Positions 128-33,709 of a stretch of 36,193 nt of DNA are shown here, piece by piece. The stretch is taken from positions 1 through 36,193 of the IMG/VR virus record IMGVR_UViG_3300042868_004541. One strand, written 5' to 3'. A program made the position numbers and the translations under genes. The notes below the pieces were generated by a model, which was given only the letters and a program-made list of their open reading frames with translations, searched no databases and had not been told where the DNA came from. Positions within the stretch are counted from its first letter, which is position 1. Every line of letters starts with the position of its first letter. Origin of the DNA: a virus.

Positions 128-291
128 TACTTTGATTCAGTTCTAATTTGCACATAGCTGGAACCATCCCAATAGTAAGCATCTGCCGTGCTCTCATCTA
201 TGTATATTGTTTTGAGCGCACCTGTAACGGGAAATGCGCCAAAAGTTGCAAAGGTTTTAACCTGTGATTCTATAAAAAAGTCGTAAGCCAT
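1..291 (-). CDS. Tail/receptor-region protein, N-terminal 97 residues (rest at 35458-36193)
   Basis: The ATG at 291-289 opens a frame that stays open to base 1 and continues in frame through the terminal repeat to a stop at 35458. The intact gene is 900 nt (299 aa) on the 36,066-bp circle. The N-terminus begins MAYDFFIESQVKTF and includes a stretch like IYIDESTADAYYWDGSSYVQI, the kind of short Tyr/Trp-rich segment seen in tail fibre and baseplate attachment proteins. The start overlaps the stop of the upstream 1132-aa tail gene as TAATG, so the two are translationally coupled. The exact role is unknown; a fibre or adaptor protein is inferred from position. Confidence 0.85.
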   Translation of the reverse strand, partial: MAYDFFIESQVKTFATFGAFPVTGALKTIYIDESTADAYYWDGSSYVQIRTESKYEAIDVLNNTGASVPKMSVCYIKTSSSSANTPEILLANATSEA

Positions 292-3200
292 TATTGCCAA
301 ATTACGTTAAGGATTGCATTGCTCAAAGTTACCACGTTTTGGCTATCCACGAGAACCCCGTCAATGTATAAATTTACTTGTGTGTCAGGAAGCTCCAAAT
401 CACCACCACTTACCACGCTTTCAACATAGCTGAAATCCGAGTTGTGAACGGTCGCGTTTTCACAAATACCTCCGCCGCCTGTTGTGGCATTAGGTAGCTG
501 TAAAATGATGTTGTCAGAGCCTTTGATATTGCCGTCGTATTTGCTTTCGTAGTAAGCAACTTTATCAACAAAAACCGCTTTGATTTTTGCAAATACGCTA
601 TCTGTGTACTCGAATGTTGGTGATTCCTCTTCGCTTAGAATTACAGGAAAGTCGTAGTACATATCTTGCACATGGTTGTTGGCGTTGTGGTCAGATATGT
701 AGATTTGATTTGCTGTGAGTAGGCACTCCTCATCAATTAAACGCGTCATGCAGGAAAGCAAATAGCTACTGCGAAGCTCGTAACTTCTCAAGGCTTCATT
801 GCGTACCTTTTCGCGCCTGCGATCAGTGTAAATAATGTTTTCGGTTTCGTACTTAGGTTGCATGTAGCCGAATTGACCACGAAAGCGTACCGTAGAGGCA
901 AAGCCTGAGTCTTTGTAATTAATACCTTGCTTGCGCACTAAATCGTTCAGCACAACGAATAAACGCACCGTACCAAGCACATTGAATGGTGTGTACTCGA
1001 CAAGGTTGTAACTTCCATAGTAGAACCAACCTGAATTACCTGAAAGCTCCCAATTGACACGAACTTTATAACAACCTTGAAGCAATACGCTTCCGCTTGC
1101 TACTTGCCTCCAATCAATGACAAAACCGACTGCATCGGGTTGGTGTGGAAAGTTTACCGTTATGCCTGGAGCAGGTGATAAATTGCCGTTTGCATCTTCG
1201 AGCTCAATGGTCATGTCATCGAACTTGTACGCGATGCCTGTGCGGTCGTTTTTATAATATGCCGCATCTTCTAGGCTTGCGACTACTAATTGAGGCTCAG
1301 AACAGAAAACCGCGCCTTTGTCCTCGCGAATCGCATCGCCCGGCAAAGTGATTTTATTAAAGTCCTGTTTGTGGACTAAATAAAAGTTGCCTTTGTCGTC
1401 TTTTTGATTGATAGTAGCAATAATTGTACTTGCGGTGTCAATGCCGCTTGTATCTATCTCACAAACTAAATGAACCTCGGTTGTGCTTATTTGCTCGATG
1501 TCTACCTTTGTCAATCCTGCCTGCGGTTGCAATGGCTTGTCTTGGCTTGACCAATCCCAAACTGTTGAAAGGCGTTTATTAGGGTCTGCCTCTTTTGGTC
1601 TTATGCTCAACCATCCCCAAATTGAAGGCTCAACCCATTGACCGACCGCGGTGGTAAATATGGCCTTGACGGTCATGATTTGGTTTGCAATGATGGCATC
1701 TTGTTGCGTACCGGTTGCATCAAATAGCTTTATTTCGCATACTTGGTCTTCTGCTGTATCGTAGTCGATAAGTGAGAAAGGATTTTCCCAATAGTATTCG
1801 ACATTGTCGGCTGTGAGTAAGCTACATTTTACTTTGATCGTGTAACCTGAGGTACGCAAGTAACGCATCCACTCGGCATTGAGACCGTTCTCAGGAAGTG
1901 AAGCGTTAAAAAAGTCTAAGAAAGCGTTGTTTTGAGCTATCCAATAGCGCCAGTTAGCCATTAGCGACCAAGTTAGCTTGGCTTCGTATGTTGTGAGCGT
2001 TTCTGTACCCGTAAGCTCTAGAGTTAGCTTGTTTGCCTGTGGGTTATCCAAGAATTGCTGAATAGGCTCGTTAAATGCGATTTGAATAACTCCGTTTGGC
2101 GTAGTTACGTAGTTAGCAAATGGAATCAATTTCGATACTAGCGCGAATTGGCTGCCGTCTGAATCTCTTTCAATGACAACCTCAGCCGTTAACGAGTTTA
2201 AAGCCTGGTTTTTGTCTAGGTTAAAAGTTGACTTATAAATAAAGTCATCTTCTGTCGTGAATCGGTTGTCCGTAACATTAACGCCAGCATGATCAGTAAA
2301 AAGCTGAGTCAATACACCCGAATAAACACCACCTTGCACAGGGTTTTTGGTCAAAATACCCTCTTTAAGGTTTAAAGTAACCGCGTTATTGTTGTTTGCC
2401 GTGCCTCCTGTGTTTTGTACGGTAAGCGTTAAGCGATATTGCAAGTCCTGCGAGCTTAGCGCGTCTGCATAAGTGTTAAACGCAGCGTTTGGCGTGAGTT
2501 TGAACGTGATTTGGGCGTAACCTGAAAGCTGAGTAAATGTAAAGGCACTTGATACCATGCGCTCAGTACCCACGCCGTAACCGCTGTAAATCGGGGTTGC
2601 GCCATTGAAGTAAATACCCGACAAACGTATCAATTCGGCGTTACTTTGTGGCTTGTTTTTGTACGTGTCAGGCTGTGGCACCATGTAAAACTGCGCCTCA
2701 ATGATATTTGAAATGGCTGCAGCGTTGTAAACTTTGACCGTTACATTGTTTTCCTGCGAAAAATCGACCTCATCAAGGTTATTTCCCGAAGCGTCTTCAA
2801 TAGTTAACTCATAAGTGAAGTCATTAACCCCTTGATTGTAGCTTTCGTTTAACCAACCCACGTTACCCAATAAGCTGCCGTTTGCTAGCTTCAATTGTGC
2901 GTTAGGATTGTTTACTTGCGGAATGACATAAAGCTCGAAATATGGCTTTAATGACTGCGAGGCTTCGAAAAAAGACGGCTCATCAAAGCTACCATCCTCA
3001 AACATGTAAGGGAAGTAGTAAAAAAGGTCTATTTGATAGCGCTTTTTACCTGATGAATCAGAAAGGCGTGTCAATCTGTTGAATACGTAAGAACCTCCCG
3101 ATTTGTTACCGAGTTGCTCCATTGTGGTATTACCATTAACTGAAAGACCTGCGAGCACGTCAGTTCTAAAGCGGTTTACTTCGCCATCAATCAAGCTATT

Positions 3201-3689
3201 AACCGAGCCATTTGCTGAGTTCTCAACGATATTGTGGAATATCTCTAAGGCTTGCGGTGTGGATGCAGAGGTGTTTACGATAGTCAAAGCTGTGTTGCCA
3301 GTCGCTGACATTGGCATGATTGCACCAACCAAAATACCTGAGCCTGCAGGGTCTAAGTTAGTGTTTACAGTAAGCGTATCGCCGTTTATATCTGTAATTG
3401 TTGCAGCAAAACTCGAAAAAGTAATTGTCCCGCTACCTTGTTGAACAACTCCGTTTAACTGAATAGCATCGCCTACATTAAAGCCATAGTCAGACCAATT
3501 TGAGCCAAAAACTTGTATTTGGTAATTGCTCGGAAAAGTAACCGTGTTTTGTGTCGTACTGACAAAAGTAAAATCTACGGTAAAGACAATTTGCTCCTGA
3601 ATCAATTGACCGGAGTTAGCAAGCAAAAACGAGTTGCCTGACGGCTGATTGCGAGTGACGTACTTTTTACTTAATATCGTTAATGCCAT
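291..3689 (-). CDS. Large tail/baseplate protein (1132 aa)
   Basis: This is the second-largest protein of the phage. It lies downstream of the tape measure and distal-tail genes and directly upstream of the fibre genes, where siphoviruses keep baseplate-hub or receptor-binding proteins. The sequence is rich in beta-type Thr/Asn/Val segments over its whole length. I see no signal peptide and no enzyme motif that I can name. The C-terminus ends with a repeated-looking beta stretch (LPDTQVNLYIDGVLVDSQNV) that could be a small binding domain. It overlaps the 70-aa gene upstream by 23 nt and is coupled to the next gene by TAATG. A structural tail role is likely; hub versus receptor-binding cannot be decided. 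Confidence 0.75.
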   Translation of the reverse strand: MALTILSKKYVTRNQPSGNSFLLANSGQLIQEQIVFTVDFTFVSTTQNTVTFPSNYQIQVFGSNWSDYGFNVGDAIQLNGVVQQGSGTITFSSFAATITDINGDTLTVNTNLDPAGSGILVGAIMPMSATGNTALTIVNTSASTPQALEIFHNIVENSANGSVNSLIDGEVNRFRTDVLAGLSVNGNTTMEQLGNKSGGSYVFNRLTRLSDSSGKKRYQIDLFYYFPYMFEDGSFDEPSFFEASQSLKPYFELYVIPQVNNPNAQLKLANGSLLGNVGWLNESYNQGVNDFTYELTIEDASGNNLDEVDFSQENNVTVKVYNAAAISNIIEAQFYMVPQPDTYKNKPQSNAELIRLSGIYFNGATPIYSGYGVGTERMVSSAFTFTQLSGYAQITFKLTPNAAFNTYADALSSQDLQYRLTLTVQNTGGTANNNNAVTLNLKEGILTKNPVQGGVYSGVLTQLFTDHAGVNVTDNRFTTEDDFIYKSTFNLDKNQALNSLTAEVVIERDSDGSQFALVSKLIPFANYVTTPNGVIQIAFNEPIQQFLDNPQANKLTLELTGTETLTTYEAKLTWSLMANWRYWIAQNNAFLDFFNASLPENGLNAEWMRYLRTSGYTIKVKCSLLTADNVEYYWENPFSLIDYDTAEDQVCEIKLFDATGTQQDAIIANQIMTVKAIFTTAVGQWVEPSIWGWLSIRPKEADPNKRLSTVWDWSSQDKPLQPQAGLTKVDIEQISTTEVHLVCEIDTSGIDTASTIIATINQKDDKGNFYLVHKQDFNKITLPGDAIREDKGAVFCSEPQLVVASLEDAAYYKNDRTGIAYKFDDMTIELEDANGNLSPAPGITVNFPHQPDAVGFVIDWRQVASGSVLLQGCYKVRVNWELSGNSGWFYYGSYNLVEYTPFNVLGTVRLFVVLNDLVRKQGINYKDSGFASTVRFRGQFGYMQPKYETENIIYTDRRREKVRNEALRSYELRSSYLLSCMTRLIDEECLLTANQIYISDHNANNHVQDMYYDFPVILSEEESPTFEYTDSVFAKIKAVFVDKVAYYESKYDGNIKGSDNIILQLPNATTGGGGICENATVHNSDFSYVESVVSGGDLELPDTQVNLYIDGVLVDSQNVVTLSNAILNVIWQ

Positions 3690-9370: not shown

Positions 9371-9523
9371 CTATGCCTTTTTGATAATCGGTTGCGCTTG
9401 TTTCCAAGCCTGTTTCACCACCTCAGCAGGAAAGTTCGCAAAGTGTGCAATTGCTTGCTTTTGCGTCATCCCTTCAAATGCCAAGGCATTGAATTGGTGG
9501 TTACCGATTTTAATTACTGTCAT
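9371..9523 (-). CDS. Small conserved-looking protein (50 aa)
   Basis: This 50-codon gene begins MTVIKIGNHQFNALAFEGMT, and its ATG overlaps the stop of the major tail protein as TAATG. It ends 24 nt before a terminator, so it is the last gene of the head/tail-tube transcript. It is helical with a Lys-rich C-terminus and no membrane segment. Perfect coupling and placement support a real gene. Function is unknown; it may be a small tail-tube accessory protein. Confidence 0.72.
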   Translation of the reverse strand: MTVIKIGNHQFNALAFEGMTQKQAIAHFANFPAEVVKQAWKQAQPIIKKA

Positions 9524-10455
9524 TAGTCAGCAATAAAAGTTGTTGCCTCACCTTCAAACCCGTTCAAAAGGTTACCTGTTGCAGCTCTGAAAGCAGACAA
9601 TGCAACAACGTCACCCGCAGTTTGAGCAGGGAGAGTAAGTGTATAAAGACCTGGTGTTACAGTCGACTCAGTCAAAGCCGAAGGGGTTACAGCCAAGTTG
9701 GTTGTTTGATTAAATAAATCAAAGTCAGCCAAAGCCGCACCTCTCCATGGCAAGCGGTTAACTGCGTTTCCGTACTCGTAATTAGCTTGGAACTCGATTT
9801 CAGTCGCTGAGTTAACAGTGATGTCAAAAGTAACGTCAATAAGTCCGTTAAGCTCAAGAGCAGAGAAAGGAGCGATTAAGCTAGATGGAATCATCCACTG
9901 ATCACCATCAGTTGTGATGAGTGAGTAGTCCATTGAGAACATAACTTTTGCACCTGCGTCAGAAGTTGCGTCAATATACTTAGCATAGAAGCTAAATTGG
10001 TTAACAGGTCTAGGAACGAGTTTCTCGCCTTCTAATTGACCCTTCATGTTACCACAAACGTCAATCAACATAATACCGAAGTTCACGCAGTTGTCAGAAA
10101 CTTTACCGAAGTATTGTTCGTTCACACCCCAAGCCTCGAAAGTAACTGTTTTAATACCGTTGCGAGTTTTGAAACGCTCACCATTGTCAGCAGTCTCAAA
10201 GTTCGGGTCAGCCTCCTCGTGAGTTACGTTACGAAGGTTGTTAAATGGATACATTCTTTTTGACGGGTCAGGGTTGTTGATCGCGTCTAGAATATCCTGT
10301 GCAAGTGTTGCACTTGTTAAGTCGATACCGTTACGAGTACCATCGTTTGCAAGAATAGGCATCATGTAAACTCCTGACGTAACTCCAAAAGGTTTAACCC
10401 CCGGATAGCCAGTGTTTCCAATTCGCCCCTTGCAGTTACATCCAGCAATAGCCAT
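9523..10455 (-). CDS. Major tail protein (310 aa)
   Basis: The protein is beta-rich and neutral, starts MAIAGCNCKGRIGNTGYPG, and has an Ig-like or immunodominant-looking C-terminal third with many Thr/Ala/Leu repeats (residues about 240-310). It is the first gene after the neck genes and has its own 45-nt upstream gap. A terminator lies soon after it, as expected for an abundant tube protein. The CxC pair near the N-terminus is unusual for this family. Assignment as tube protein rests on gene order, size and composition. Confidence 0.78.
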   Translation of the reverse strand: MAIAGCNCKGRIGNTGYPGVKPFGVTSGVYMMPILANDGTRNGIDLTSATLAQDILDAINNPDPSKRMYPFNNLRNVTHEEADPNFETADNGERFKTRNGIKTVTFEAWGVNEQYFGKVSDNCVNFGIMLIDVCGNMKGQLEGEKLVPRPVNQFSFYAKYIDATSDAGAKVMFSMDYSLITTDGDQWMIPSSLIAPFSALELNGLIDVTFDITVNSATEIEFQANYEYGNAVNRLPWRGAALADFDLFNQTTNLAVTPSALTESTVTPGLYTLTLPAQTAGDVVALSAFRAATGNLLNGFEGEATTFIAD

Positions 10456-10500
10456 AATCTTGTTTTTTAATTGATTAAATAAAAATTGTTCGTACCAAAA

Positions 10501-11223
10501 TTAGCAATTTTCACAATATCGCTTTATCATTTTGAAATTCACGTCTAGTTCAATCGCTGAAAGCGTGCTATCAAACAAAGCCTTGTCGATGCCGTTTTCG
10601 TTTTCTGTACCAAATTTAGGGAAGTCGCGAGTAGCGTAATTAAGGCTATCGCCGTCAAAAATATTGCTTAGCCTGTTCATTGTAGACATGAACTCATTAA
10701 GTAGCGCATATAGCGGCTTTATGGCCTCGTCTTGTCGGTCTACGTTTAGTTTCTTCCAATCAGACCAATGTACAAACCAAAGTTTTGCAATTACGGTCTT
10801 TGAGCCTCCTGCGTTGTAGTTATCGGTTTTCTCCTCTGTTGGAGATACCAACCAAATAAACGGCAGTTTATCGCGCTCCTTGTTTTGCTTGGTCGTTGGG
10901 TCCACGTATTTATTCCACTCCCATTTGGTGTTGGAAAGCGTGCCATTCAAAAGCAATGGTTTAGGTAGGGAATAGATTTCTAAGATTGTGATTTCCACAT
11001 CGGTCTCAACTATAAACTCAACCTCAGAAACAACCTCAACTACTTTGGTAGGCAATCCGTTAATGAGTAAACGATCAAGGTAAAGGCGTAGCCATTTGGC
11101 ATCGCAAAACGTAACCGACTGCGTGAAATTGACATTGTCAAATACACCAACCTCAACAGCCTTCAAAGAGTTGTCTAGGTTGTTGATTACAAATTCCTGT
11201 ATTTGCTCGCTAACTAGCTTCAT
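10501..11223 (-). CDS. Neck/tail-completion protein (240 aa)
   Basis: It sits between a connector-like gene and the major tail protein, in the usual slot for tail terminator or head-tail joining proteins. The start is taken as the ATG at 11223 (MKLVSEQIQEFVIN), which overlaps the previous stop as ATGA; a TTG three codons earlier is also in frame. The protein is mixed alpha/beta and ends YCENC. No motif gives a firm name. A tail-terminator role is an inference from synteny. Confidence 0.72.
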   Translation of the reverse strand: MKLVSEQIQEFVINNLDNSLKAVEVGVFDNVNFTQSVTFCDAKWLRLYLDRLLINGLPTKVVEVVSEVEFIVETDVEITILEIYSLPKPLLLNGTLSNTKWEWNKYVDPTTKQNKERDKLPFIWLVSPTEEKTDNYNAGGSKTVIAKLWFVHWSDWKKLNVDRQDEAIKPLYALLNEFMSTMNRLSNIFDGDSLNYATRDFPKFGTENENGIDKALFDSTLSAIELDVNFKMIKRYCENC

Positions 11224-11728: not shown

Positions 11729-11980
11729 TTACTCGATTACGATTTCCTCACCTTCATTTGTTACATCGGCCTCAGGAGCTTCGTTAGTCTCAGGAGCTGG
11801 AGCCTGTGGCTCTTCAACTTCAACTTCAACTTCTTTCTTTCCTTTTGCTTTAGCTTTTTCTTTCGCGTCTACTGCCACAGCTTTTCCATCTTTGATGAGT
11901 GCCTCAGCAAATTTGTCAGATAGATCTACAACGTGACCTTTGCGATTAGGGTGAAATTTCTCGGTTAATTTAACTTTCAT
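11729..11980 (-). CDS. Small capsid-associated protein (83 aa)
   Basis: The first 38 residues (MKVKLTEKFHPNRKGHVVDL) resemble a compact beta domain often found next to phage capsid genes. The remainder is a low-complexity Lys/Ala then Glu/Pro-rich tail ending EEIVIE. It lies immediately downstream of the capsid gene, after a strong RNA hairpin, and 5 nt before the connector gene. It may be a head decoration or assembly protein; this is inferred. The biased tail alone would not be evidence of function. Confidence 0.68.
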   Translation of the reverse strand: MKVKLTEKFHPNRKGHVVDLSDKFAEALIKDGKAVAVDAKEKAKAKGKKEVEVEVEEPQAPAPETNEAPEADVTNEGEEIVIE

Positions 11981-12066: not shown

Positions 12067-13266
12067 TTAGTCAGTAATCAATGCGATAGCGTCAGCCATT
12101 ACACCTTTAACCAATACTTGAGTATCGTTTGCAGAAACGAACTGTACCAATGCTTGCTCAGCAAGGATAGTACGCATGTTGTTTGTAAAGTCGTTACCGT
12201 CTTCTCCAATGTTGATTGAAAGACCTTCACGGAAACGAACGTTTACAACTGACAAGTCACCACCAACAAAGTCAAATCCTGAACCAACAAGCGCAAGCTC
12301 TGGAATTAATTGCATTCCGGCAACTTGAGTACCGTCAGCAGATTTGAAAGGTGGGATTAAGTAAATACCGTCAGTAGATTTCTCCATGTCCATTTGTGCA
12401 AGGATGTCAGGATTAACGAATACAGCCGAAGCAGTACCGAAACCTTTTTGTACTTGTAAAGCCAATGCACGGAACACGTCAAAGTTTGAAGGTGTAGCGG
12501 TTGTGATGCCACCACCTGTAAACAAAGTTGCATAACCAAGTAGGCCGTTTAACATTGTACCGTCACCAGAAAACAACTCAGTTACAGTTGCAACCTCGAT
12601 ACGACGTAACAAGTTTGCTTGCAAGTAAGAAACTAACTGCGGAAGGTCGCGAAGCATCTCGGTAGAAACTTTGCAGTAAACTGCGATTTTCTGAACCTTA
12701 GCTTCTTTCTCTTTGTACTGTGCAGACACTTTGGTTTTACCAACGCCTTCACCAATGAAGATTGGTGTGCCTTGCTCGTTGTACTCTTCAACCCACATTG
12801 CTACGCGGTTGTTGATTGTACCAACTGAAACAAGACCTAAGTAACGAGATACGCGTGAACGTACTGCGCTAATTACACCCGTGAAAGATGTCAACAACCA
12901 ATGTGAAGCTGAGTCACCTCCAAGGATAGTGTTTGCCTCAGTTACGTTAACTGCTGCTTTTACTTGGATGTCTACGTTAGCACCTTTGTTGTTGATTGCG
13001 TTGTTGATGTCCTCAGCTTTAGCCTCGAATGCGCTCATTAAAGCCTCACGGAAAGATTTAACAACTTTCGCAGGCTCATTGTTAGCTTGTTTCAAAGCCT
13101 CGATTTGAGTCTCAACATTTGTGATCGCCTCTTTAATCGCTGTGACGTCGTTAGCGCTTTTTAATTCTTCGATGGATGCTTTGATAGCCTCAACATCTGT
13201 TTGGTTTGCAAAACCCTTAGTTGCTAGTTTTTCCTCAAGGGCTTTAACTACTTCTTCTACTGTCAT
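12067..13266 (-). CDS. Major capsid protein, HK97 fold (399 aa)
   Basis: Residues 1-75 form a charged coiled coil (MTVEEVVKALEEKLATKGF), as in the delta/scaffold region that the maturation protease removes in HK97-type capsids. Residues about 105-399 match the pattern of the mature shell domain: an N-arm, a long central helix, and a P-domain segment ending in beta-strands with FVSANDTQVLVKGV. The gene directly follows the protease gene with an 11-nt gap, the usual protease-capsid order. It should form the icosahedral shell. Confidence is high for the family, though the cleavage site cannot be placed exactly. Confidence 0.93.
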   Translation of the reverse strand: MTVEEVVKALEEKLATKGFANQTDVEAIKASIEELKSANDVTAIKEAITNVETQIEALKQANNEPAKVVKSFREALMSAFEAKAEDINNAINNKGANVDIQVKAAVNVTEANTILGGDSASHWLLTSFTGVISAVRSRVSRYLGLVSVGTINNRVAMWVEEYNEQGTPIFIGEGVGKTKVSAQYKEKEAKVQKIAVYCKVSTEMLRDLPQLVSYLQANLLRRIEVATVTELFSGDGTMLNGLLGYATLFTGGGITTATPSNFDVFRALALQVQKGFGTASAVFVNPDILAQMDMEKSTDGIYLIPPFKSADGTQVAGMQLIPELALVGSGFDFVGGDLSVVNVRFREGLSINIGEDGNDFTNNMRTILAEQALVQFVSANDTQVLVKGVMADAIALITD

Positions 13267-13277
13267 TTTATTAGAAT

Positions 13278-14198
13278 TTAGAAGTTAGAAATTACTTTGC
13301 TCCAATCCAAGGCAGGAGCTTCTTTGCCTTCTTGAGTGTCTTTAGACGGCTCGTTGTTAGAAGTGCTTTTGGCGGCTTCCTTGCGACGTGTTCCACAGCC
13401 TTTGCAAAGTCCGTTACCATTGTCGACTGTCATGGTATCGGTTTCTGCTTCGCACGTGTCGCAGTATTCTTTATTTGCGTTCTCTACAATAGAGATTACA
13501 GGTGTAATTGCATTGCTACCTTTTACAACGGCAGAACCCTCAACAACTTTTGCCTCGGTAACTGCCCAAAAATAACCGTAGTTGTCGGCTACTTCTTTGT
13601 TGACTACCTGAGGATAGTATTTATCCCAATTCGCCTTCTCACTTGCGTAGCTTGGTTCGTTGGTGTCTACACAAAGGAAAAGTTTAACGTAGCGCATCCC
13701 AACCGAGTGATTCAGAACGTAGCCGTTTTTATACTGCTCAAACATGAACGGATTGCGCTTGTTGTCAATCGTTACGTCAAAGACAAGAGCCTCAGTTGAA
13801 CCCTCGTAACTTGCGCCTAACTTGCTCCAAGGCATTTTCTTAGTTGATGCCGTGAAGTCGTTATTTACGTTGTCAGCAATTACGTACTCGAACTCCATTT
13901 CATGCTCCTGCAATAAGTAGAGCGTTTTCATCTCCTGCAAAGACTTTTTCCAAAGACCAGGGATATGGCAGTCCATATGTGAGTCAATTACGTTGGTTGT
14001 ATTAATACAAAGGCCGAGTTTCATGGTGCCGAGCTCCATAGCTTGACCGTTACCATCTTGTTTGATTACCTCGGTTTTGTGATTGACTTCGCCATAAGAA
14101 CCGAACACCACATCTCCATGCTTTAAAGTCGATGTCTTTTTCGCGTATAAAAGCTCTTTGTTAGCTAGTACATCTTTAATTGATTCCTCTCTAGTCAT
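13278..14198 (-). CDS. Prohead maturation protease with C-terminal zinc-ribbon (306 aa)
   Basis: The core resembles HK97-type prohead proteases. His74 or His78 in DSHMDCHIPGLW and Ser165 in LNHSVGMRY are the likely catalytic residues, and the typical GSNAITPVISI segment closes the domain near residues 227-237. It then adds two CxxC pairs (C246/C249 and C265/C268), which form a probable zinc ribbon, followed by a polar 35-residue tail. The gene lies upstream of the major capsid gene and should cleave its N-terminal scaffold. The ribbon is not part of the minimal protease. The start overlaps a 28-codon ORF as ATGA. Confidence 0.85.
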   Translation of the reverse strand: MTREESIKDVLANKELLYAKKTSTLKHGDVVFGSYGEVNHKTEVIKQDGNGQAMELGTMKLGLCINTTNVIDSHMDCHIPGLWKKSLQEMKTLYLLQEHEMEFEYVIADNVNNDFTASTKKMPWSKLGASYEGSTEALVFDVTIDNKRNPFMFEQYKNGYVLNHSVGMRYVKLFLCVDTNEPSYASEKANWDKYYPQVVNKEVADNYGYFWAVTEAKVVEGSAVVKGSNAITPVISIVENANKEYCDTCEAETDTMTVDNGNGLCKGCGTRRKEAAKSTSNNEPSKDTQEGKEAPALDWSKVISNF

Positions 14199-14281
14199 TT
14201 CTTTACAGTTTCATTTGAGACCTTAACAACCTCCTTAACTTGCTTGATTGCTTCGATTTCTTTCGGCGTTAAATTACTCAT
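14195..14281 (-). CDS. Possible 28-aa leader peptide upstream of protease
   Basis: ATG at 14281 to TGA at 14195 encodes MSNLTPKEIEAIKQVKEVVK plus eight residues, a Lys-rich helix. Its stop overlaps the protease start as ATGA, so it could couple translation of the protease. A purine-rich AAGGAGG lies within it, upstream of the protease ATG. It could equally be a chance frame in the leader. Confidence 0.4.
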   Translation of the reverse strand: MSNLTPKEIEAIKQVKEVVKVSNETVKK

Positions 14282-14283
14282 AT

Positions 14284-14316
14284 CAAAGTTATTTGAGCAA
14301 ATTTATAATAATTTTG
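14284..14316. promoter_or_regulatory. Divergent promoter region between protease and portal
   Basis: The 140-base gap between the two oppositely directed genes contains three matches to the Bacteroidota -7 element TAnnTTTG: TAATTTTG on the plus strand at 14309-14316, and TAAATTTG (14298-14305) and TAACTTTG (14284-14291) on the minus strand. A plus-strand TTTG lies at 14292-14295, but its 13-nt spacing is shorter than usual. The portal gene needs its own plus-strand promoter, and this is the only intergenic place for it. Confidence 0.55.
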
Positions 14317-14338
14317 GCCTACACATTAAATTTAAACG

Positions 14339-15520
14339 ATGGACTTTTTCAGCAAAGTATTCGCGCTTTTCGGCATCAACAACCCTAATTACTATACCAC
14401 ACAACAAATCGGAACGGTTGTGCCTGAATGGGTGAACACATCTGACAAGTGGAATTTGTATTATTCTATTCCAGAACTCAACGCAGTAATTAACCGATTT
14501 GCTGACATGGTGGCTAGTGCCAATCCAATGATCGTTGACAAAGATGGTAACCCCGTGAAAAATAACGGCAACCCGATTTTCAAACTAATCGACCGACCTA
14601 ACGCTATGCAGTCTTGGGGCAAAATGATGAAATTCGTTGCTATTAATCAGTGCATTACAAATAACGTCATTGTGTACGCTCCAAACGGCTCGTTTGGTAA
14701 ATTGCAGTTGATGCCTTTGGCTTTCAATAATGTGAAGATTGTGCCAACCGGTCAAAACCTCATCACGGTTGATTTGAAGTCGTTTATTAAAGAATTTCAA
14801 ATCCCAATAAGTCGCATTGATACCTACACTACGTTTTTGCCTGAGGAGATTATTTACATTACCGAGGTGGATGGTATTGATATGTTCAACTCACGATCTA
14901 AGATTGATGCTTTGAAGATGCCATTGAGCAACCTACAAAAGCAATACGAAAAGAGAAACGTGCTACTTCGCAATATGTTCTCACTTGGTATTTTATCGAG
15001 CGACAACAAAGACGGCATTTCATCGCTTCCTTTAGAGGATGAGGATATCAAGAAAATCCGCAAGGACATGAAGGCAAGAAATGAAGGTGAGGTTATTATA
15101 ACTGATAAGCCAATCAAATTCGAGCCTATGACGTTCCCGGTTAAAGACTTGATGCTATTTGAGGAAATGACTGCTGACAAATTAGCCATTATTGATGCCT
15201 ACGGATTGAATCAACATATGTTCGGTCAAGGTGAAGGCGGCAAAGGCTCAACTTTCTCAAATGTTGAAATGGGAGAGCGTCAGGCGTACAACTCAACTAT
15301 CATTCCTACAACGGAAATCCTATACGATGAGTTCACTAAGCAAATGAAGCTCAATGAGGAGGGAATATACTTGGTGCCAGACTTCTCACACATCTCTGTG
15401 CTCAAGGAAGACCAAACGCGAAGTGCTGAAGCCATGTTCAAACGTGCAAGCGCAGTTGAGAAGATAAGCAACATTACTCCGCTTAGCGATCAAGAGAAAC
15501 GCGATTTACTCGGCATCTAG
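14339..15520 (+). CDS. Portal protein, HK97 family (393 aa)
   Basis: The sequence follows the HK97-type portal pattern. The N-terminal region has WNLYYSIPELNAVINRFADM. A central beta/alpha clip-wing region includes IIYITEVDGIDMFNSRSKID. A C-terminal segment, GLNQHMFGQGEGGKGSTFSN then ERQAYNSTIIPTTEILYDEF, is characteristic of portals. Twelve copies would form the DNA entry ring and bind terminase. It is the only gene on the plus strand of the phage. Its stop overlaps the stop of the large terminase by 15 bp. It must have its own promoter (see 14309-14316), and the late minus-strand transcript from terminase would be antisense to it. Confidence 0.92.
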   Translation: MDFFSKVFALFGINNPNYYTTQQIGTVVPEWVNTSDKWNLYYSIPELNAVINRFADMVASANPMIVDKDGNPVKNNGNPIFKLIDRPNAMQSWGKMMKFVAINQCITNNVIVYAPNGSFGKLQLMPLAFNNVKIVPTGQNLITVDLKSFIKEFQIPISRIDTYTTFLPEEIIYITEVDGIDMFNSRSKIDALKMPLSNLQKQYEKRNVLLRNMFSLGILSSDNKDGISSLPLEDEDIKKIRKDMKARNEGEVIITDKPIKFEPMTFPVKDLMLFEEMTADKLAIIDAYGLNQHMFGQGEGGKGSTFSNVEMGERQAYNSTIIPTTEILYDEFTKQMKLNEEGIYLVPDFSHISVLKEDQTRSAEAMFKRASAVEKISNITPLSDQEKRDLLGI

Positions 15521-16861
15521 TTTCGGCAACATCGCCTGAACAAACAACGCTAGACCTGTAACTGCGTCGGGCGCATCGTCATTCTTGTTTTTACCCTCTT
15601 TTTGATAGCCTTTAAGGTTGTGAATAAACTGCCCATACTCGCCGATTTGGTCGGCTAGGAATCTGAATTTGCGCAGCACGTAGCTACTATTCATTATAAT
15701 TCGCGTCTCTTTGTTCTGATTATTTACAACAGGCAACAGCCTCGTTTTTGTGGCCTTGCGTAGCGATTTAATGAATATCGCCCCCATTCCATTGGTTTCA
15801 ACCCTACAATAGCTCACGTTGTTGTCATCCAATACTTTGGCACAAAGTGGGATAGTAACGTCAGTATTTGCCTTTGAGAAAACTACATCTGTGATGTACA
15901 CATCTTTTCCGACTATGTGGCCAATGACTAAGCAAAGGAAGTCGCTGCCCTCGTCAGCTACGTCAATGTAAGCAAATGCGCCTGCGGTGTGTTTCTTGAC
16001 CGCCTGAACGTCTTTAAATGTACGCAAGTGCTCAAACAAACGGCCTTTGATGTCAACAGGCTGCTGCATATACTCAGCCATCCAAATCTCTTCCCTGGTC
16101 TTTTGCTTTTTACGCAAATATTCCTCGGTGGTCATTACGGCCTCGCAAAACGAAAGCAATTCACCGTCTTGCTCAATGAGTGCCGGCACAATTATTTGTC
16201 GGTCGTAATAGCCTTGTTCGGTATTTTTACCGATAACGTCGTCACGTGTCCAACGCGTACCGATGTCAATCTCAGCACATCCGCTTTCTTTACGTGAGTC
16301 ATGTGTTGCCTCTTTCCATGAGTGCGTTTTTTCGCGTATCGTTTCACTCATCGCATCCTCCATGGATTTAAAAAGGTCATCGGTAATGGCTAGCTTGCTT
16401 GCACCAAAACCAATGATTGTACCGCCAACGCCTCGGCCAAAATAACCGACCTGCTTTGAGTAATTAGTCGACCAAGCGTCAACGCTACCTCTGTCATCTG
16501 ATAGCCTTACTTCGGGAAATACCTGCATGAATTTTTCTGATCGTACAATATCCCTTGCATCGTATGAAAGTTTTTGAGCAAGCGTTGCAGTACAGGTGTT
16601 TCTCATTACGCTTTCAGTTGGATGCTTTCCAAGTGTCCAAGCACAAAACAATGAGGTTATGTAGGATTTACCTGCGCGAGGTGGTAGCGATACTGCCAGC
16701 GTTCTGATTACTCGGTCATCAATATCTTGAAACGCCTGTGCGATTTCTTTGAGGTATGGCCGTGATTTGAAAAAGTCATAGTCATAGAAGAAACAGAACG
16801 CAACGAAATTACTTCGTGCGGCCGATTGCAGTAATGGCTTTATTTCATCATAGCTTATCAA
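15506..16861 (-). CDS. terL: Terminase large subunit (451 aa)
   Basis: The ATPase domain has a Walker A-like PPRAGKS at residues 60-66 and a Walker B-like LAITDD near residue 160. The C-terminal nuclease domain begins AFAYIDVADEGSDFLCLVIG and ends with DDAPDAV, giving the acidic residues expected of the RNase H-like headful nuclease. It packages DNA through the portal. The gene has no in-frame ATG near its N-terminus; a TTG at 16861, overlapping the small subunit by 14 nt, is the best start. It converges on the portal gene with a 15-bp overlap. Confidence 0.93.
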   Translation of the reverse strand: MISYDEIKPLLQSAARSNFVAFCFFYDYDFFKSRPYLKEIAQAFQDIDDRVIRTLAVSLPPRAGKSYITSLFCAWTLGKHPTESVMRNTCTATLAQKLSYDARDIVRSEKFMQVFPEVRLSDDRGSVDAWSTNYSKQVGYFGRGVGGTIIGFGASKLAITDDLFKSMEDAMSETIREKTHSWKEATHDSRKESGCAEIDIGTRWTRDDVIGKNTEQGYYDRQIIVPALIEQDGELLSFCEAVMTTEEYLRKKQKTREEIWMAEYMQQPVDIKGRLFEHLRTFKDVQAVKKHTAGAFAYIDVADEGSDFLCLVIGHIVGKDVYITDVVFSKANTDVTIPLCAKVLDDNNVSYCRVETNGMGAIFIKSLRKATKTRLLPVVNNQNKETRIIMNSSYVLRKFRFLADQIGEYGQFIHNLKGYQKEGKNKNDDAPDAVTGLALFVQAMLPKLDAE

Positions 16862-17384
16862 TGAGCTTCGTTATTTGGTCATCGTTTAGCTCAATTCCTT
16901 TTGGGGTGTTTAGGCTTTGATTGTTGGTTGTAATGTCGACCTTATCGCCGTACTTCTTAGGCATGATTTTCGATAAGTACCATTTACGCGTGTCAATTTG
17001 TAGCTTGTTGCGGTGAATGACATTGTGGTCTGTTCGCTCCTTTCCATCAGCATCAATGTACACGTCTTTGTCTTGTTTATCAGCAATATCTAGCATCTCC
17101 TCGAATATCATTTCGCTACGTATTTCAGCTGCACGCGCGTATTTTTTCGCGTTATTTTCGTCCTCATTTAGCCATTTATAGAACATATCAGTGCTTAAAC
17201 CAAGCCTTTTAATGCCCTTAATTGCGCTAATCCCCTCAATTTCAATCATTTGGCAAAGCAACTCAAATTTCTCAGGCGTATTCTTCACAGTTGGCACACC
17301 TGTTTTCTTTCTTGGTTGTCCTGCCTTTGTTAATGGACTAGGCTTTTTCCTTGGTGCTCTTGGTTTTTTCTCTTTCTTTTCCAT
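16848..17384 (-). CDS. terS: Terminase small subunit (178 aa)
   Basis: After a very basic N-terminus (MEKKEKKPRAPRKK), residues about 45-90 hold a helix-turn-helix-like block (EGISAIKGIKRLGLSTDMFY), followed by a helical oligomerisation region and an acidic C-terminus. This is the layout of Sf6-type small terminases that recognise the packaging site and form a ring. The ATG at 17384 is preferred because an earlier frame start at 17411 lies inside a terminator hairpin. It heads the packaging/head operon. Confidence 0.85.
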   Translation of the reverse strand: MEKKEKKPRAPRKKPSPLTKAGQPRKKTGVPTVKNTPEKFELLCQMIEIEGISAIKGIKRLGLSTDMFYKWLNEDENNAKKYARAAEIRSEMIFEEMLDIADKQDKDVYIDADGKERTDHNVIHRNKLQIDTRKWYLSKIMPKKYGDKVDITTNNQSLNTPKGIELNDDQITKLIDKL

Positions 17385-17396
17385 GTTACAATGTAT

Positions 17397-17422
17397 AAAA
17401 AAGGCCGACAATGAGCCGACCT
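17397..17422 (-). terminator. Terminator between early region and terminase operon
   Basis: An 8-bp stem (17402-17409 with 17415-17422) has two G-U pairs that form only in the minus-strand RNA, with a 5-nt loop followed by six T. It ends the transcript carrying the ParB-like gene and separates it from the packaging genes. Confidence 0.82.
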
Positions 17423-17447
17423 AATTGCATCAATCAACGTACCAAAT

Positions 17448-17681
17448 TTAGCGTTTTCTGTACAATTGAAAAAACTTAACCAACATCCTTGCCTTTCTTT
17501 GTTCGGGGTGTTGTCCGATTATTTCAAGGAGTTTCGGATAAAGTGGCAGCGCTGAAATGGCACGGTTAAAACGTCTGTCGGTCATTGCTCCGTGAACAAT
17601 TAAACGCCCAATTTGCTCGTATTGTTTAGCTTGTAGGTCTTTTTGTTTTTTGCCGAATAAGCGTCTAAGAAAAGAAAACAT
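17448..17681 (-). CDS. Small basic protein (77 aa)
   Basis: The start MFSFLRRLFGKKQKDL at 17681 is preferred over a frame start at 17726 because it overlaps the preceding membrane-protein gene by only 17 nt. The protein is rich in Arg/Lys and helical, with an amphipathic N-terminus that could touch the membrane. It is the last gene before a terminator. Function is unknown. Confidence 0.6.
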   Translation of the reverse strand: MFSFLRRLFGKKQKDLQAKQYEQIGRLIVHGAMTDRRFNRAISALPLYPKLLEIIGQHPEQRKARMLVKFFQLYRKR

Positions 17682-24551: not shown

Positions 24552-25766
24552 TTACAACGGCAATTGCTTCAAGATTTTGTAAAGAACATTTACCACAATT
24601 GAGTTGCCAGCTTGCTTGTATGCTTGAGAGTCAGACACCTTCCAAGTAAATGTATCTGGGAAGTCCATCAGCCTGAAGCATTCTCTTGGTGTGAGTCTGC
24701 GGATTTCTCCTGATTTTAAAGTTCCTTGATTACAAGCGGTATCCAAAGTTTGTGCTACCCCTTTGCCTACTCTACCTCTTCTAGTTTCACTATTTGGTAC
24801 GCTAAAATTTATTGAATCGCCTTCAGTTGCTTCTTCGTAACCTTTGGCTGTAGCTGATTTTACTTGAATGTATCCCATAGCATATCCATGCGTGCCAGCT
24901 GTCATAGTTTGCGAAACACCATCTTCAGAATAAACTGAACTTGCCTGAGTATCTTGATTTACAACTCCAACTTTCAAGGTGTTATCAGTTGCCGCAAGGG
25001 CGGCATTTGCCCTTAAACAAGCAGCAATGTCATTTTCATCTTTTGGTTTCCAATTAAATCCATCTTGCCCTTTTTCCTCAATATGCCTTTTGTTATGCGC
25101 TAAAAATCCTGAAATCATTTTCTCACTCAGAAAATACTTTGAATCCACTTCACTTTCAAGAACATCTTTCAATCGCTTGGTTAAATGCTCTTCTCGTGGG
25201 AATTGAAATTTGTTGTCTGAATCATCTCGTATGCCAATTAAGAACACTCTCTCACGATTCTGTGGAACTCCATGATTCTTCGCATTAAGAACTTGCCAAT
25301 ACAAATGATAAGGCACTGATTCTTCGTAAGGAAATAAAACCGGTAAGCCATTAACTGATTTTCCGCCAAGTAAATTTACCCACTCTTGAAAAGTTCTGCC
25401 ACCATCATCAGAAAGTAAACCTTTGACGTTTTCAAAGATGAAAAACCTTGGCTTGTTTACTTGAATAAACTCGTGTGAATTAAAGAACAAAATGCCTCGT
25501 TTGTCTTCTTTCCCAAGTCGCTTTCCGGCCAAGCTAAACGCTTGACATGGTGGCGATGTCATGTAAACATCAAGTGACTGCTTTGGTATTTCTCGATCAT
25601 ACACATTTGTCGGATAGTAGTCGGGTTCTCCGTAGTTGTGAATGAATGTATCTCTTGCAAACTTATCCATGTCGCAAGCAAAAATCGTTTTGTAGTCAAC
25701 ACCTAATCTAATCAATGCTTGATCAAAAGCGCCAACACCGCTAAAGTCTGAACCAACCCTTACCAT
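24552..25766 (-). CDS. DNA (cytosine-5-)-methyltransferase (404 aa)
   Basis: All main C5-methylase motifs are visible: motif I DFSGVGAF near residue 7, motif IV TSPPCQAFS with catalytic Cys74, motif VI FENVKGL near 112, and motif VIII PQNRERVFLIGI near 168. A target-recognition region of about 150 residues follows, then motif X QAGNSIVVNVL near the C-terminus. It transfers methyl from AdoMet to a cytosine in an unknown target. No restriction enzyme is encoded nearby, so it is an orphan, probably protecting phage DNA from host restriction. The start at 25766 overlaps the preceding stop as ATGGTAA; a start 18 nt upstream is also possible. Confidence 0.93.
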   Translation of the reverse strand: MVRVGSDFSGVGAFDQALIRLGVDYKTIFACDMDKFARDTFIHNYGEPDYYPTNVYDREIPKQSLDVYMTSPPCQAFSLAGKRLGKEDKRGILFFNSHEFIQVNKPRFFIFENVKGLLSDDGGRTFQEWVNLLGGKSVNGLPVLFPYEESVPYHLYWQVLNAKNHGVPQNRERVFLIGIRDDSDNKFQFPREEHLTKRLKDVLESEVDSKYFLSEKMISGFLAHNKRHIEEKGQDGFNWKPKDENDIAACLRANAALAATDNTLKVGVVNQDTQASSVYSEDGVSQTMTAGTHGYAMGYIQVKSATAKGYEEATEGDSINFSVPNSETRRGRVGKGVAQTLDTACNQGTLKSGEIRRLTPRECFRLMDFPDTFTWKVSDSQAYKQAGNSIVVNVLYKILKQLPL

Positions 25767-26257
25767 CTCATCCCATTTTTGCACGCGAGCTTTACGGTCT
25801 CTTGCGCTAGGTAATAAATCTTTTTCGGCAATATCTGCTGTACTGCGTCTTCTACTTGGTTTTTTGCTACGTCTCGAATGTAAACGTCTCTAGCTGCATC
25901 CTTGAGGTTTGCCCATTCATGGCGCATTTGCCTCCAAAACTTATCAGCTATCACGCGAGCTTCAAACATATCTCCCATCCATTCATTGAACTCTAGGCTA
26001 TCAATGTACTTTTGTTTGGCGCGCAGGAAAAATTGTTCTTCAGCTTCGTTTGAGGCTTGTTGCTTTGTGTTTTCGATGTGTTGCTGTTCAATCACCTGGC
26101 GAAGTATTTGCTTTTTCTTGATGTAGTCGCGAATTGGCGTCATGAACTCATCAAGGGTCATTTTTTGGCCGGGAATCTTTTGAACGGTTGTGTAATCAAA
26201 GCATGTTTTTAAATCGTCAATTGATAGAGGATTGTGCATGTTGATTAAAGTTTCCAT
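25760..26257 (-). CDS. Hypothetical helical protein (165 aa)
   Basis: The frame is open from 26518, but that start would overlap the replication initiator by 242 nt. The ATG at 26257 lies 20 nt after the initiator stop and is preferred (METLINMHNPLSIDDLKTCF). The protein is helical with a Gln-rich, charged middle (IEQQHIENTKQQASNEAEEQ) and a YIDSLEFNEWMGDMFEARVI block. Between an initiator and a methylase it might assist replication, for example by recruiting host helicase, but no AAA motif is present and no family is recognised. Confidence 0.68.
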   Translation of the reverse strand: METLINMHNPLSIDDLKTCFDYTTVQKIPGQKMTLDEFMTPIRDYIKKKQILRQVIEQQHIENTKQQASNEAEEQFFLRAKQKYIDSLEFNEWMGDMFEARVIADKFWRQMRHEWANLKDAARDVYIRDVAKNQVEDAVQQILPKKIYYLAQETVKLACKNGMRW

Positions 26258-26276
26258 GATTGAACTTAGCAGTATA

Positions 26277-27269
26277 TCAGTTATCCGATCGCTCTCCAAT
26301 CCGTAGCGTACTTCCAATATTCTCAGGATTAAACTCTGGACTGCTCCAATCGAGTTTCTCAAGTCTTCCGATGAACTCGACAGTATCGAGTTTACCTGTT
26401 GCGTGCTTAAGATAAAATTCCGCGATTTCAACTTGTCTTGAATTGAGGCTTCCGAGCCTTGCCAAATTTCTAACAGCTTTGTGGATGTCAGCGTAACGGC
26501 GTTCTTGTGGTGTTCCATTTTGAGTTGTTATTTGATTGTTATTTGATTGAGTTGATTTTAATTTAAATAAGCCTTTCCAAAGGCTTGATATTGACTGATC
26601 AATAATTTCTTGAGCAAGCTGGCTATTTCCCCCGCAAATTTTATTCAAGGCGTTGATTGCTGTTTGCTCCGTTTCTAATTCCTTGTACTTTTCTTTGTGT
26701 TGAGTGTGTTTATACCTAACCCATTGCGACCATAATTTTTCAGCTAAAATAGGATCGTTGAAATCTTGAAAATTGAGTTTTGGCTCCAATACTAATTCTA
26801 CTTCAGTAGGATTAGTAATATTATTTTCATTATTATCCTTATTATCATTATTCTCATTATTGTCTGTGTCGGAACGCAGTTCTTTTGCAGTCGGCTTGCG
26901 GTTTTTTTGCGGTTTTTTTGCGGTCTGATGCTCTTGGTAATCGCTATATTTTACTATGGTTAAGGTGGTCTTTTTTGAATCAGTAACTTTTTCAATCATT
27001 GATTGACTTTCGAGCAGACTTAGAAAAGTCCTGAGCTTACTTTTTGACCATGAAAATTCAGCCATTAATTTGATTTCTGACGTAATAAACGAGCCTTTTT
27101 TTACATTTATCAATTGGTTGCCTAGCAGAACTTTTGTGTCCGTATGGTTGGCATTCATCAACAAATAAAGCCATGCTTCAAATTTTGAAAAAGCGCGCTT
27201 TTCCTTAAAAAGAAAGTTCTGCATTACCTTCCTGTGTAGACTTATGTAACCTTGATTTTCTTGGCTCAT
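26277..27269 (-). CDS. Replication initiator-like protein with N-terminal winged helix (330 aa)
   Basis: Residues about 5-115 (GYISLHRKVMQNFLF, then AFSKFEAWLYLLMNANH and ITSEIKLMAEFSWSKSKLRT) match the winged-helix N-terminus of phage replication initiator/replisome-organiser proteins. A Lys/Pro then Asn/Asp-rich linker follows (about 115-160), and a helical C-terminal domain (about 170-330) could load host helicase. The start MSQENQG at 27269 is chosen because an earlier frame start lies in a terminator hairpin. The linker DNA contains an 11-bp repeat array and an AT-rich run (26816-26923), as in lambda O, where the origin lies inside the initiator gene. No other replication enzyme is encoded. 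Confidence 0.75.
   Translation of the reverse strand: MSQENQGYISLHRKVMQNFLFKEKRAFSKFEAWLYLLMNANHTDTKVLLGNQLINVKKGSFITSEIKLMAEFSWSKSKLRTFLSLLESQSMIEKVTDSKKTTLTIVKYSDYQEHQTAKKPQKNRKPTAKELRSDTDNNENNDNKDNNENNITNPTEVELVLEPKLNFQDFNDPILAEKLWSQWVRYKHTQHKEKYKELETEQTAINALNKICGGNSQLAQEIIDQSISSLWKGLFKLKSTQSNNNQITTQNGTPQERRYADIHKAVRNLARLGSLNSRQVEIAEFYLKHATGKLDTVEFIGRLEKLDWSSPEFNPENIGSTLRIGERSDN
26816..26923 (-). other. Candidate replication origin: five 11-bp repeats plus AT-rich run
   Basis: On the minus strand five 11-mers lie head to tail at 26923-26869: CCGCAAAAAAA, CCGCAAAAAAA, CCGCAAGCCGA, CTGCAAAAGAA, CTGCGTTCCGA. The shared core is CyGC followed by A-rich bases. The period of 11 is not a multiple of three, so the repeats are read in different frames (AKKP, QKN, RKP and so on), which argues for selection at the DNA level. 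Immediately beside them, 26866-26816 is almost pure A/T on the AAT/GAT pattern, a natural unwinding element. The layout resembles lambda-type origins. Confidence 0.6.
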
Positions 27270-27286
27270 TTCAAATTTATTGGCAA

Positions 27287-27337
27287 CAAAAAAGCCCATT
27301 AGGTTCAGCAGTTGCAGTACTTCCCCCAATGAGCTTT
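27287..27337 (-). terminator. Terminator before the replication initiator gene
   Basis: Arms 27291-27300 and 27328-27337 form a 10-bp stem. The single C/A mismatch on the plus strand becomes a U-G pair in minus-strand RNA, and a six-T run follows in that direction. The loop is long (27 nt). It separates the small early genes from the initiator gene and explains why the initiator should start at 27269. Confidence 0.7.
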
Positions 27338-32658: not shown

Positions 32659-33010
32659 TTGTCGGTAAATTTAGAAAAATTGGCTCATATTCTTCAGTTG
32701 TTGCGTGTCCTGCGAATGCGTGCTTTGGGTTCTTTGGTTCGATAAGGTTAGCTCCGAAGTCATAGGTGTTGTCCGACATTACGTCGTAGTGATACCCGTC
32801 TGCGTAGATAGGTTCTTCGATTACTTCCATTCCTTCCATTACGGGAGGGGTTAACATAATTTTTCCGATAGTTACCACAGCTTGTACGCCATTACCATAA
32901 GCTAAAGTTATTTTCTCGTCAATACCTTTAGTTTCGACTAATATGCCTTTTGACTTCAAATCTTCAATTCCTTCCTGTTCGTTATTGTAACAGAGCTTAA
33001 AAATGTTCAT
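32651..33010 (-). CDS. Hypothetical protein (119 aa)
   Basis: MNIFKLCYNNEQEGIEDLKS starts with an ATGA overlap with the endonuclease gene. The chain is acidic and mixed alpha/beta, with YADGYHYDVMSDNTYDFGAN in the middle; I recall similar short proteins beside fibre genes in Bacteroidota phages but cannot assign a role. There is no signal peptide. Confidence 0.65.
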   Translation of the reverse strand: MNIFKLCYNNEQEGIEDLKSKGILVETKGIDEKITLAYGNGVQAVVTIGKIMLTPPVMEGMEVIEEPIYADGYHYDVMSDNTYDFGANLIEPKNPKHAFAGHATTEEYEPIFLNLPTND

Positions 33011-33708: not shown

Positions 33709-33709
33709 C

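What the first reader, a model, noticed from the sequence alone, without database searches (positions are those of the whole stretch)
14284..15520. Portal gene inverted inside the head operon, the only plus-strand gene of the phage
All other genes run on the minus strand. The portal lies between terminase and protease in the usual gene order, but is flipped, and its stop overlaps the terL stop by 15 bp. Late transcription from terminase towards protease and capsid would make RNA antisense to the portal gene. The portal needs only 12 copies per particle against hundreds of capsid subunits, so antisense or collision control of its dose is plausible. A TAATTTTG element at 14309-14316 could be its promoter, with minus-strand promoters facing it.
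Basis: partly seen in the sequence, partly recalled or inferred. Interest (0 to 1): 0.75.

Follow-up and report, generated by a model that had tools for sequence, protein, structure and literature searches.

The report
Flipped portal gene with two-way promoter
In a large group of uncultured, probably Bacteroidota-infecting phages, the gene for the DNA-entry ring of the virus head is turned round by itself inside the head-gene cluster, and it appears to share one mirror-symmetric two-way promoter with the capsid genes, which could be a simple way of expressing the two parts of the shell together.

Summary
ORF 14339-15520 (+) is a full-length portal (PF04860, 2e-29). It lies tail-to-tail with terL (15-bp stop overlap) and head-to-head with the protease-capsid operon. 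It is not an assembly error: 33 of 56 non-redundant relatives have the same single-gene inversion. On the portal tree orientation changed four times; rooted on canonical isolates, the parsimonious reading is one ancient inversion and three reversions.

The unexpected part is the promoter. Between portal and protease lie two back-to-back Bacteroidota -7 elements (window: CAAATTTA-TAA-TAATTTTG, 14298-14316). Strict pairs offset by 10/11 or 20/21 bp (one or two helical turns) occur in 23 of 32 inverted relatives (shuffles 0.02) and 0 of 21 canonical ones (relaxed: 29 of 32). In 315 kb of inverted loci, 23 of 24 such pairs are at the portal. The capsid operon thus carries its own promoter and need not be read through the portal.

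The antisense/collision idea is therefore unnecessary and not supported: terL-portal overlap varies from -20 bp to 3 kb. Best explanation: a symmetric bidirectional promoter fires portal one way and protease-MCP the other. Whether the two directions compete is untested. Nearest known: P2 divergent head operons, E. coli bidirectional promoters.

The parts
14339..15520 (+). portal protein gene, 393 aa, the inverted gene
   Evidence: PF04860 2.1e-29, phrog_12 2.4e-31; purifying selection in the + frame
14309..14316 (+). -7 element TAATTTTG of the portal promoter; predicted start of transcription about 14321
   Evidence: Consensus TAHHTTTG with start 4-5 nt downstream in F. johnsoniae (PMC6847099); present upstream of portal in 27/32 inverted and 19/21 canonical relatives, shuffles 4.5 and 2.3
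14298..14305 (-). -7 element TAAATTTG of the protease-capsid operon promoter; predicted start of transcription about 14293
   Evidence: Exact match; reverse element in 29/32 inverted relatives, shuffles 3.6; fixed offset to the portal element
14298..14316 (.). symmetric bidirectional promoter core CAAATTTA-TAA-TAATTTTG (offset 11 bp)
   Evidence: Only occurrence in the window, expected 0.01; 23/32 strict and 29/32 relaxed in inverted relatives, 0/21 in canonical
14195..14281 (-). small ORF, 28 aa (MSNLTPKEIEAIKQVKEVVKVSNETVKK), first gene of the protease-capsid transcription unit, ATGA overlap with the protease start
   Evidence: Conserved as a 28-35 aa ORF in the window's clade; positional counterparts of 38 and 44 aa in Flavobacterium phage snusmum9-1 and Polaribacter phage Freya
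13278..14198 (-). prohead protease homologue (306 aa)
   Evidence: No direct Pfam hit, but 6 of 14 aligned homologues match PF04586 Peptidase_S78, best 5.9e-23
12067..13266 (-). major capsid protein, HK97 fold
   Evidence: PF05065 5.9e-18, phrog_10 2.1e-28
15506..16861 (-). terminase large subunit, convergent with portal
   Evidence: phrog_38 2.2e-74, PF17289
16848..17411 (-). terminase small subunit (likely start ATG at 17384)
   Evidence: PF20901 8.1e-26
15506..15520 (.). 15-bp overlap of the terL and portal stop ends
   Evidence: coordinates; 12-15 bp in the close clade, otherwise variable
10496..10503 (-). -7 element TAATTTTG upstream of the next late unit (gene 9523-10455)
   Evidence: similarly placed in L012, L014, L034, L060

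Best explanation
The portal gene is a one-gene transcription unit that carries its own host-type (Bacteroidota primary sigma factor) promoter. In the window and in most inverted relatives this promoter is one half of a mirror-symmetric bidirectional promoter whose other half starts the leftward small-ORF / protease / MCP operon. The two -7 elements lie 11 bp apart here (10-11 or 20-21 bp in relatives), so each falls on the AT-rich -18 or -28 region of the other, and two polymerases could not both be bound. terS-terL form a separate unit that converges on the portal. Shown by sequence: orientation, its conservation, the promoter-like pair, its fixed spacing, and its link to inversion. Inferred: that both halves are active, that they are used late, and that they couple portal to capsid expression. 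An ancestor with a self-promoted portal in canonical order (as in the Freya and snusmum isolates) made the inversion tolerable; it was later undone three times on the most parsimonious rooting, and the canonical descendants lack the symmetric pair.
For: Inversion in 33 of 56 portals at 90% clustering, portal identity to the window 38-99%. Tree: four orientation changes forced by supported branches, same count across bootstraps. Strict symmetric pairs at 10/11/20/21 bp in 23/32 inverted, shuffle mean 0.02, max 1; relaxed 29/32; 0/21 canonical. 23 of 24 strict pairs in 315 kb lie at the portal start; unique in the window. Motif equals the published -7 TAHHTTTG with no G at the H positions of the portal-side element, and published AT-rich motifs at -18 and -28 fit the 10/21-bp spacings. 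Forward element 18-25 nt before the portal ATG in most inverted loci, reverse element usually about 14-22 nt before the first leftward ATG. No other -7 element upstream of protease or MCP in the window or the relatives checked. Extra genes between portal and terL in relatives (up to 12) are all on the terL strand, so the inverted unit is always portal alone. Canonical Freya, Danklef, snusmum and gut contigs all have portal co-directional.
Against: No transcript data. The host is inferred, not known. Phylogenetically independent contrasts between orientation and symmetric pair number only four (on average 3.3 agree, none oppose), too few for significance. Several relatives have TAnnTTTA in one or both halves, which may be weak. 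L168, L151 and L176 lack a pair by the relaxed rule. A palindrome of this kind could instead be an operator. In E. coli the two directions of tested bidirectional promoters did not compete at basal activity (PMC12825309).
Confidence: 0.74

Rival explanations
1. Antisense or collision control: late transcription from terS-terL runs on through the portal in antisense to protease and capsid, lowering portal expression.
For: Convergent arrangement with 15-bp overlap and no terminator found at the junction in the window.
Against: Protease-capsid operon has its own conserved promoter; overlap varies from -20 bp to about 3 kb; intrinsic terminators at 4 of 27 junctions, expected about 0.2; the convergence is not conserved in length or sequence.
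Confidence: 0.12
2. The symmetric element is mainly a palindromic operator for a dimeric phage or host regulator, with the -7 match incidental or secondary.
For: Perfectly matching halves in several loci (L029, L144, L167 and others).
Against: Two discrete spacings (10-11 and 20-21 bp) suit two independent -7 elements better than one rigid operator; canonical relatives keep a single half upstream of the portal ATG; the sequence is the published sigma consensus.
Confidence: 0.13
3. The inversion is a neutral, tolerated rearrangement with no regulatory value; the promoters are simply those each gene needs.
For: Four orientation changes on the tree and viable canonical relatives show that either orientation works. 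Some canonical members carry separate promoters for portal and protease.
Against: Long persistence across portals as low as 38% identity and a tightly fixed promoter spacing suggest constraint on the shared promoter, though fitting two promoters in a short space may be reason enough.
Confidence: 0.3
4. Assembly error or contig chimera.
For: None found.
Against: Same arrangement in dozens of independent metagenome contigs, with matching promoter architecture.
Confidence: 0.01
5. Invertible (phase-variable) DNA segment flipped by a recombinase.
For: Sister loci L029 and L031 (81% identical portals) differ in orientation.
Against: No flanking inverted repeats around the portal in the window; all near-identical relatives share one orientation; the canonical loci have different promoters, so the change is evolutionary.
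Confidence: 0.02

Closest known systems
Phage P2 divergent late operons (P-Q versus O-N-M-L...)
   Same: Portal gene on the strand opposite to the scaffold/protease-capsid operon; divergent late promoters between the two units; a shared regulatory site.
   Different: In P2 terL (P) and portal (Q) form one operon on the same strand and terL, not portal, is next to the promoters; starts are 111 bp apart with an annotated activator site. Here portal alone is flipped, terL is on the capsid strand, and the two core promoters interlock within about 20 bp.
Bidirectional (symmetric) promoters of E. coli
   Same: Back-to-back core elements giving divergent starts, with mutually exclusive polymerase binding (PMC12825309).
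   Different: E. coli cases use sigma-70 -10 symmetry with starts commonly 18, 10 or 23 bp apart; here Bacteroidota -7 elements are 10/11 or 20/21 bp apart, giving predicted starts about 28 bp apart in the window, and sit at one conserved place between portal and capsid genes.
Bacteroidota primary-sigma promoters (TTTG / TAHHTTTG)
   Same: Exact -7 consensus; weak or absent -33; short AT-rich leaders (PMC6847099).
   Different: Paired and interlocked in opposite directions.
Canonical flavobacterial head clusters (Polaribacter phages Freya/Danklef, Flavobacterium phage snusmum9-1)
   Same: Same order terL, portal, small ORF, protease/structural, MCP; homologous proteins; a TAnnTTTG upstream of portal.
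   Different: Portal on the same strand as its neighbours and no symmetric pair.

Membership tests
Phage portal protein (PF04860) | Sequence match to the family over its full length | tested here: met
   2.1e-29, model 3-320 of 321
Phage portal protein (PF04860) | Dodecameric ring at one capsid vertex | not testable with these tools
   needs purified protein or particles
Bacteroidota primary-sigma promoter | -7 element TAHHTTTG | tested here: met
   TAATTTTG and TAAATTTG; conserved in relatives
Bacteroidota primary-sigma promoter | -33 element TTTG about 19 nt upstream | tested here: not met
   No TTTG at that spacing for either element in the window and no clear -33 column in the alignment; F. 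johnsoniae promoters also show little -33 signal, so this is not treated as excluding membership
Bacteroidota primary-sigma promoter | Transcription start 4-5 nt downstream of the -7 element | not testable with these tools
   needs 5'-end mapping
Bidirectional (symmetric) promoter | Core elements on both strands at a fixed short offset | tested here: met
   23/32 strict at 10/11/20/21 bp, shuffles 0.02
Bidirectional (symmetric) promoter | Divergent transcripts from both halves, mutually exclusive binding | not testable with these tools
   needs in vitro transcription or RNA-seq
P2-type divergent head operons | terL and portal co-transcribed, both opposite to the capsid operon | tested here: not met
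   terL is on the capsid strand; P2 record checked
Invertible DNA segment | Inverted repeats flanking the segment | tested here: not met
   none around the portal
Prohead protease S78 (gene 13278-14198) | Match to PF04586 | tested here: inconclusive
   Window protein itself no hit; 6 of 14 aligned homologues hit, best 5.9e-23

The most novel reading that the evidence does not exclude
The interlocked promoter is a polymerase-partitioning device: because polymerase can face only one way at a time, the portal (12 copies) and protease-capsid (hundreds of copies) are expressed in linked, ratio-controlled fashion, and selection on that coupling has kept the portal gene inverted across a large phage lineage.
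Probability: 0.28. Interest if true: 0.8.

Novelty: new variant of a known kind. Interest (0 to 1): 0.62.

Why it matters
Head-gene order and direction are among the most conserved features of tailed phages, and how the portal is kept at one 12-subunit ring per particle against hundreds of capsid subunits is a long-standing question. A lineage in which the portal alone has been turned round, apparently turned back several times, and tied to the capsid operon by a symmetric promoter of fixed helical phase is a natural experiment: canonical and inverted relatives can be compared directly for portal:capsid ratio. It also suggests that symmetric bidirectional promoters, known in E. coli, exist with the very different Bacteroidota sigma factor, with a spacing rule that can be tested.

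Tried and rejected
Assembly error: rejected by independent contigs. Phase-variable inversion: no flanking inverted repeats. Second portal elsewhere in the window: only one portal match among the 20 larger proteins scanned; not searched exhaustively. E. coli-type sigma-70 promoters: no excess over shuffles in 12-18 kb. Full TTTG-N18-21-TAnnTTTG promoters: one chance-level match, not here. Rfam and tRNA scans of the window: nothing. A conserved convergent terminator: strict scan 4 of 27 junctions, none in the window's close clade, so not a general feature; a first version of that scan missed stems that absorb the T run and was replaced. An antisense gene inside the portal: longest antisense frame 80-141 aa and not constant. 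Asymmetry of promoter strength: the two halves show no consistent difference in consensus match. Host genomes: only one distant canonical relative, in a Rhodobacteraceae MAG that may be mis-binned. Literature searches for an inverted portal gene found none; the library holds open-access papers only.

Full report
OBSERVATION. The window is a 36,193-base IMG/VR virus record, linear. ORF 14339-15520 (+), 393 aa, is a complete portal protein: PF04860 2.1e-29 over almost the whole model, phrog_12 2.4e-31. Its neighbours are terL 15506-16861 and terS, both minus, and on the other side a 28-aa ORF (14195-14281), a protease homologue (13278-14198) and the HK97-type MCP (12067-13266), all minus. The protease label rests on homologues: 6 of 14 aligned members hit Peptidase_S78, best 5.9e-23; the window protein itself does not. 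The portal and terL stops overlap by 15 bp. All other genes with family matches are minus; gaps between them hold only short plus-strand ORFs, at most 43 aa. Substitutions between relatives fall mainly at codon position 3 of the plus frame.

NOT AN ARTEFACT. Relatives were fetched with portal and terL queries and with a 17-member portal alignment. Scoring portal, terL, MCP and protease with profiles built from them gave orientation for 164 portals (redundant copies included); at 90% clustering 33 are inverted and 23 canonical. All 99%-identical relatives and members down to about 38% portal identity share the inversion. In relatives with extra genes between portal and terL, up to 12 of them, every extra gene is on the terL strand; the inverted unit is always the portal alone.

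HISTORY. On a maximum-likelihood portal tree orientation needs four changes, all forced by supported branches and stable across bootstraps (a quick mixture-model tree also gives four, three of them forced). The window's 12-row clade is entirely inverted. Sister loci L029 (inverted) and L031 (canonical) differ. Canonical outgroups are Polaribacter phages Freya and Danklef, Flavobacterium phage snusmum9-1 and gut contigs. Rooted on Freya the parsimonious reading is one inversion at the base of the group and three reversions (L145, L031 and an 18-row clade); the long outgroup branch makes the root less certain, and counts of changes alone cannot tell gain from loss.

PROMOTER. Upstream of the portal, 27 of 32 inverted and 19 of 21 canonical loci have TAnnTTTG, the Bacteroidota -7 element, against 4.5 and 2.3 in dinucleotide shuffles. 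So the portal probably has its own promoter in either orientation. In the inverted loci a second element points the other way. The start-to-start offset is 10 bp (10 loci), 11 (7), 20 (1) or 21 (5): 23 of 32 loci carry a strict pair, shuffle mean 0.02, largest 1; with the last base relaxed to G/A 29 of 32; canonical 0 of 21. In the window the element is CAAATTTA-TAA-TAATTTTG at 14298-14316, its only occurrence (expected 0.01). In 315 kb of non-redundant inverted loci 23 of 24 strict pairs lie at the portal start. In Flavobacterium johnsoniae the -7 consensus is TAHHTTTG, transcription starts 4-5 nt downstream, and AT-rich motifs at -18 and -28, successive helical turns, outweigh any -33 motif (PMC6847099). 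An offset of 10-11 or 20-21 bp puts each -7 element on the -18 or -28 region of the other promoter; this link is my inference. Among the head and tail genes checked, other -7 elements lie upstream of terS, of gene 9523-10455 (similarly placed in relatives) and of gene 291-3689, and none upstream of protease or MCP, so the leftward half is the obvious promoter for the protease-capsid operon.

MECHANISM. Most likely the region is three late units: terS-terL; portal alone rightward; small ORF-protease-MCP and following genes leftward. The last two fire from one symmetric promoter. Polymerase binding one way excludes the other, as for E. coli bidirectional promoters, but there basal competition was too weak to matter unless an activator was present (PMC12825309). 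Coupling of portal and capsid expression is therefore possible but unproven. In the window's own close clade no terminator was found, so some antisense RNA is possible there.

LIMITS. Relatives share ancestry: only four phylogenetically independent contrasts link orientation to the symmetric pair, two to four agreeing in different pairings and none opposing, which cannot reach significance. No RNA data exist. The host phylum is inferred from promoter type and from the isolates with homologous head genes.

COMPARISON. P2 also has portal opposite to the capsid operon, with divergent late promoters, but there terL and portal form one operon, terL is the promoter-proximal gene, and the starts are 111 bp apart. 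I found no report of a portal inverted alone, within an open-access library. I class it as a new variant of a known kind.

Noticed in passing
17384-17450: On the minus strand a -7 element TAAATTTG (17443-17450) is followed by a terminator-like hairpin with a T run (17422-17402) and then the terS ATG (17384). The longest-ORF TTG start at 17411 lies inside the hairpin. This could be a leader attenuator for terS-terL or the end of the upstream unit.
   Followed up: partly
12067-13266 and 11729-11980: Between otherwise 98-99% identical relatives (L003, L004) the MCP is only 83% and the next gene about 70% identical, suggesting local recombination exchange of capsid genes.
   Followed up: no
16848-17411: terS is 75% identical in L007 while terL is 100%, and 99% identical in L014 while terL is 90% and portal 70%: mosaic exchange within the packaging genes.
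   Followed up: no
33007-35461: A NUMOD3 homing-endonuclease-like gene (33007-33822, minus) starts inside the last 113 bp of the preceding tail gene with a carbohydrate-binding domain (33710-35461, minus).
   Followed up: no
L023, L030, L032, L063 (terL-portal junction): In these canonical relatives the TAA stop codon of terL is itself the first three bases of the portal -7 element (TAAATTTG / TAATTTTG).
   Followed up: partly
L160, L158 (upstream of portal): Both a 10-bp and a 20/21-bp partner element are present on the capsid side, possibly an intermediate between the two spacings.
   Followed up: no
25760-27329: Two same-strand ORFs (25760-26518 and the DnaD-like helicase loader 26277-27329) overlap by about 240 bp; one start is probably misplaced.
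   Followed up: no
L219: The only genome-collection relative is a contig of a Rhodobacteraceae MAG but has the canonical head cluster of this phage group with a Bacteroidota-type -7 element; probably mis-binned.
   Followed up: no
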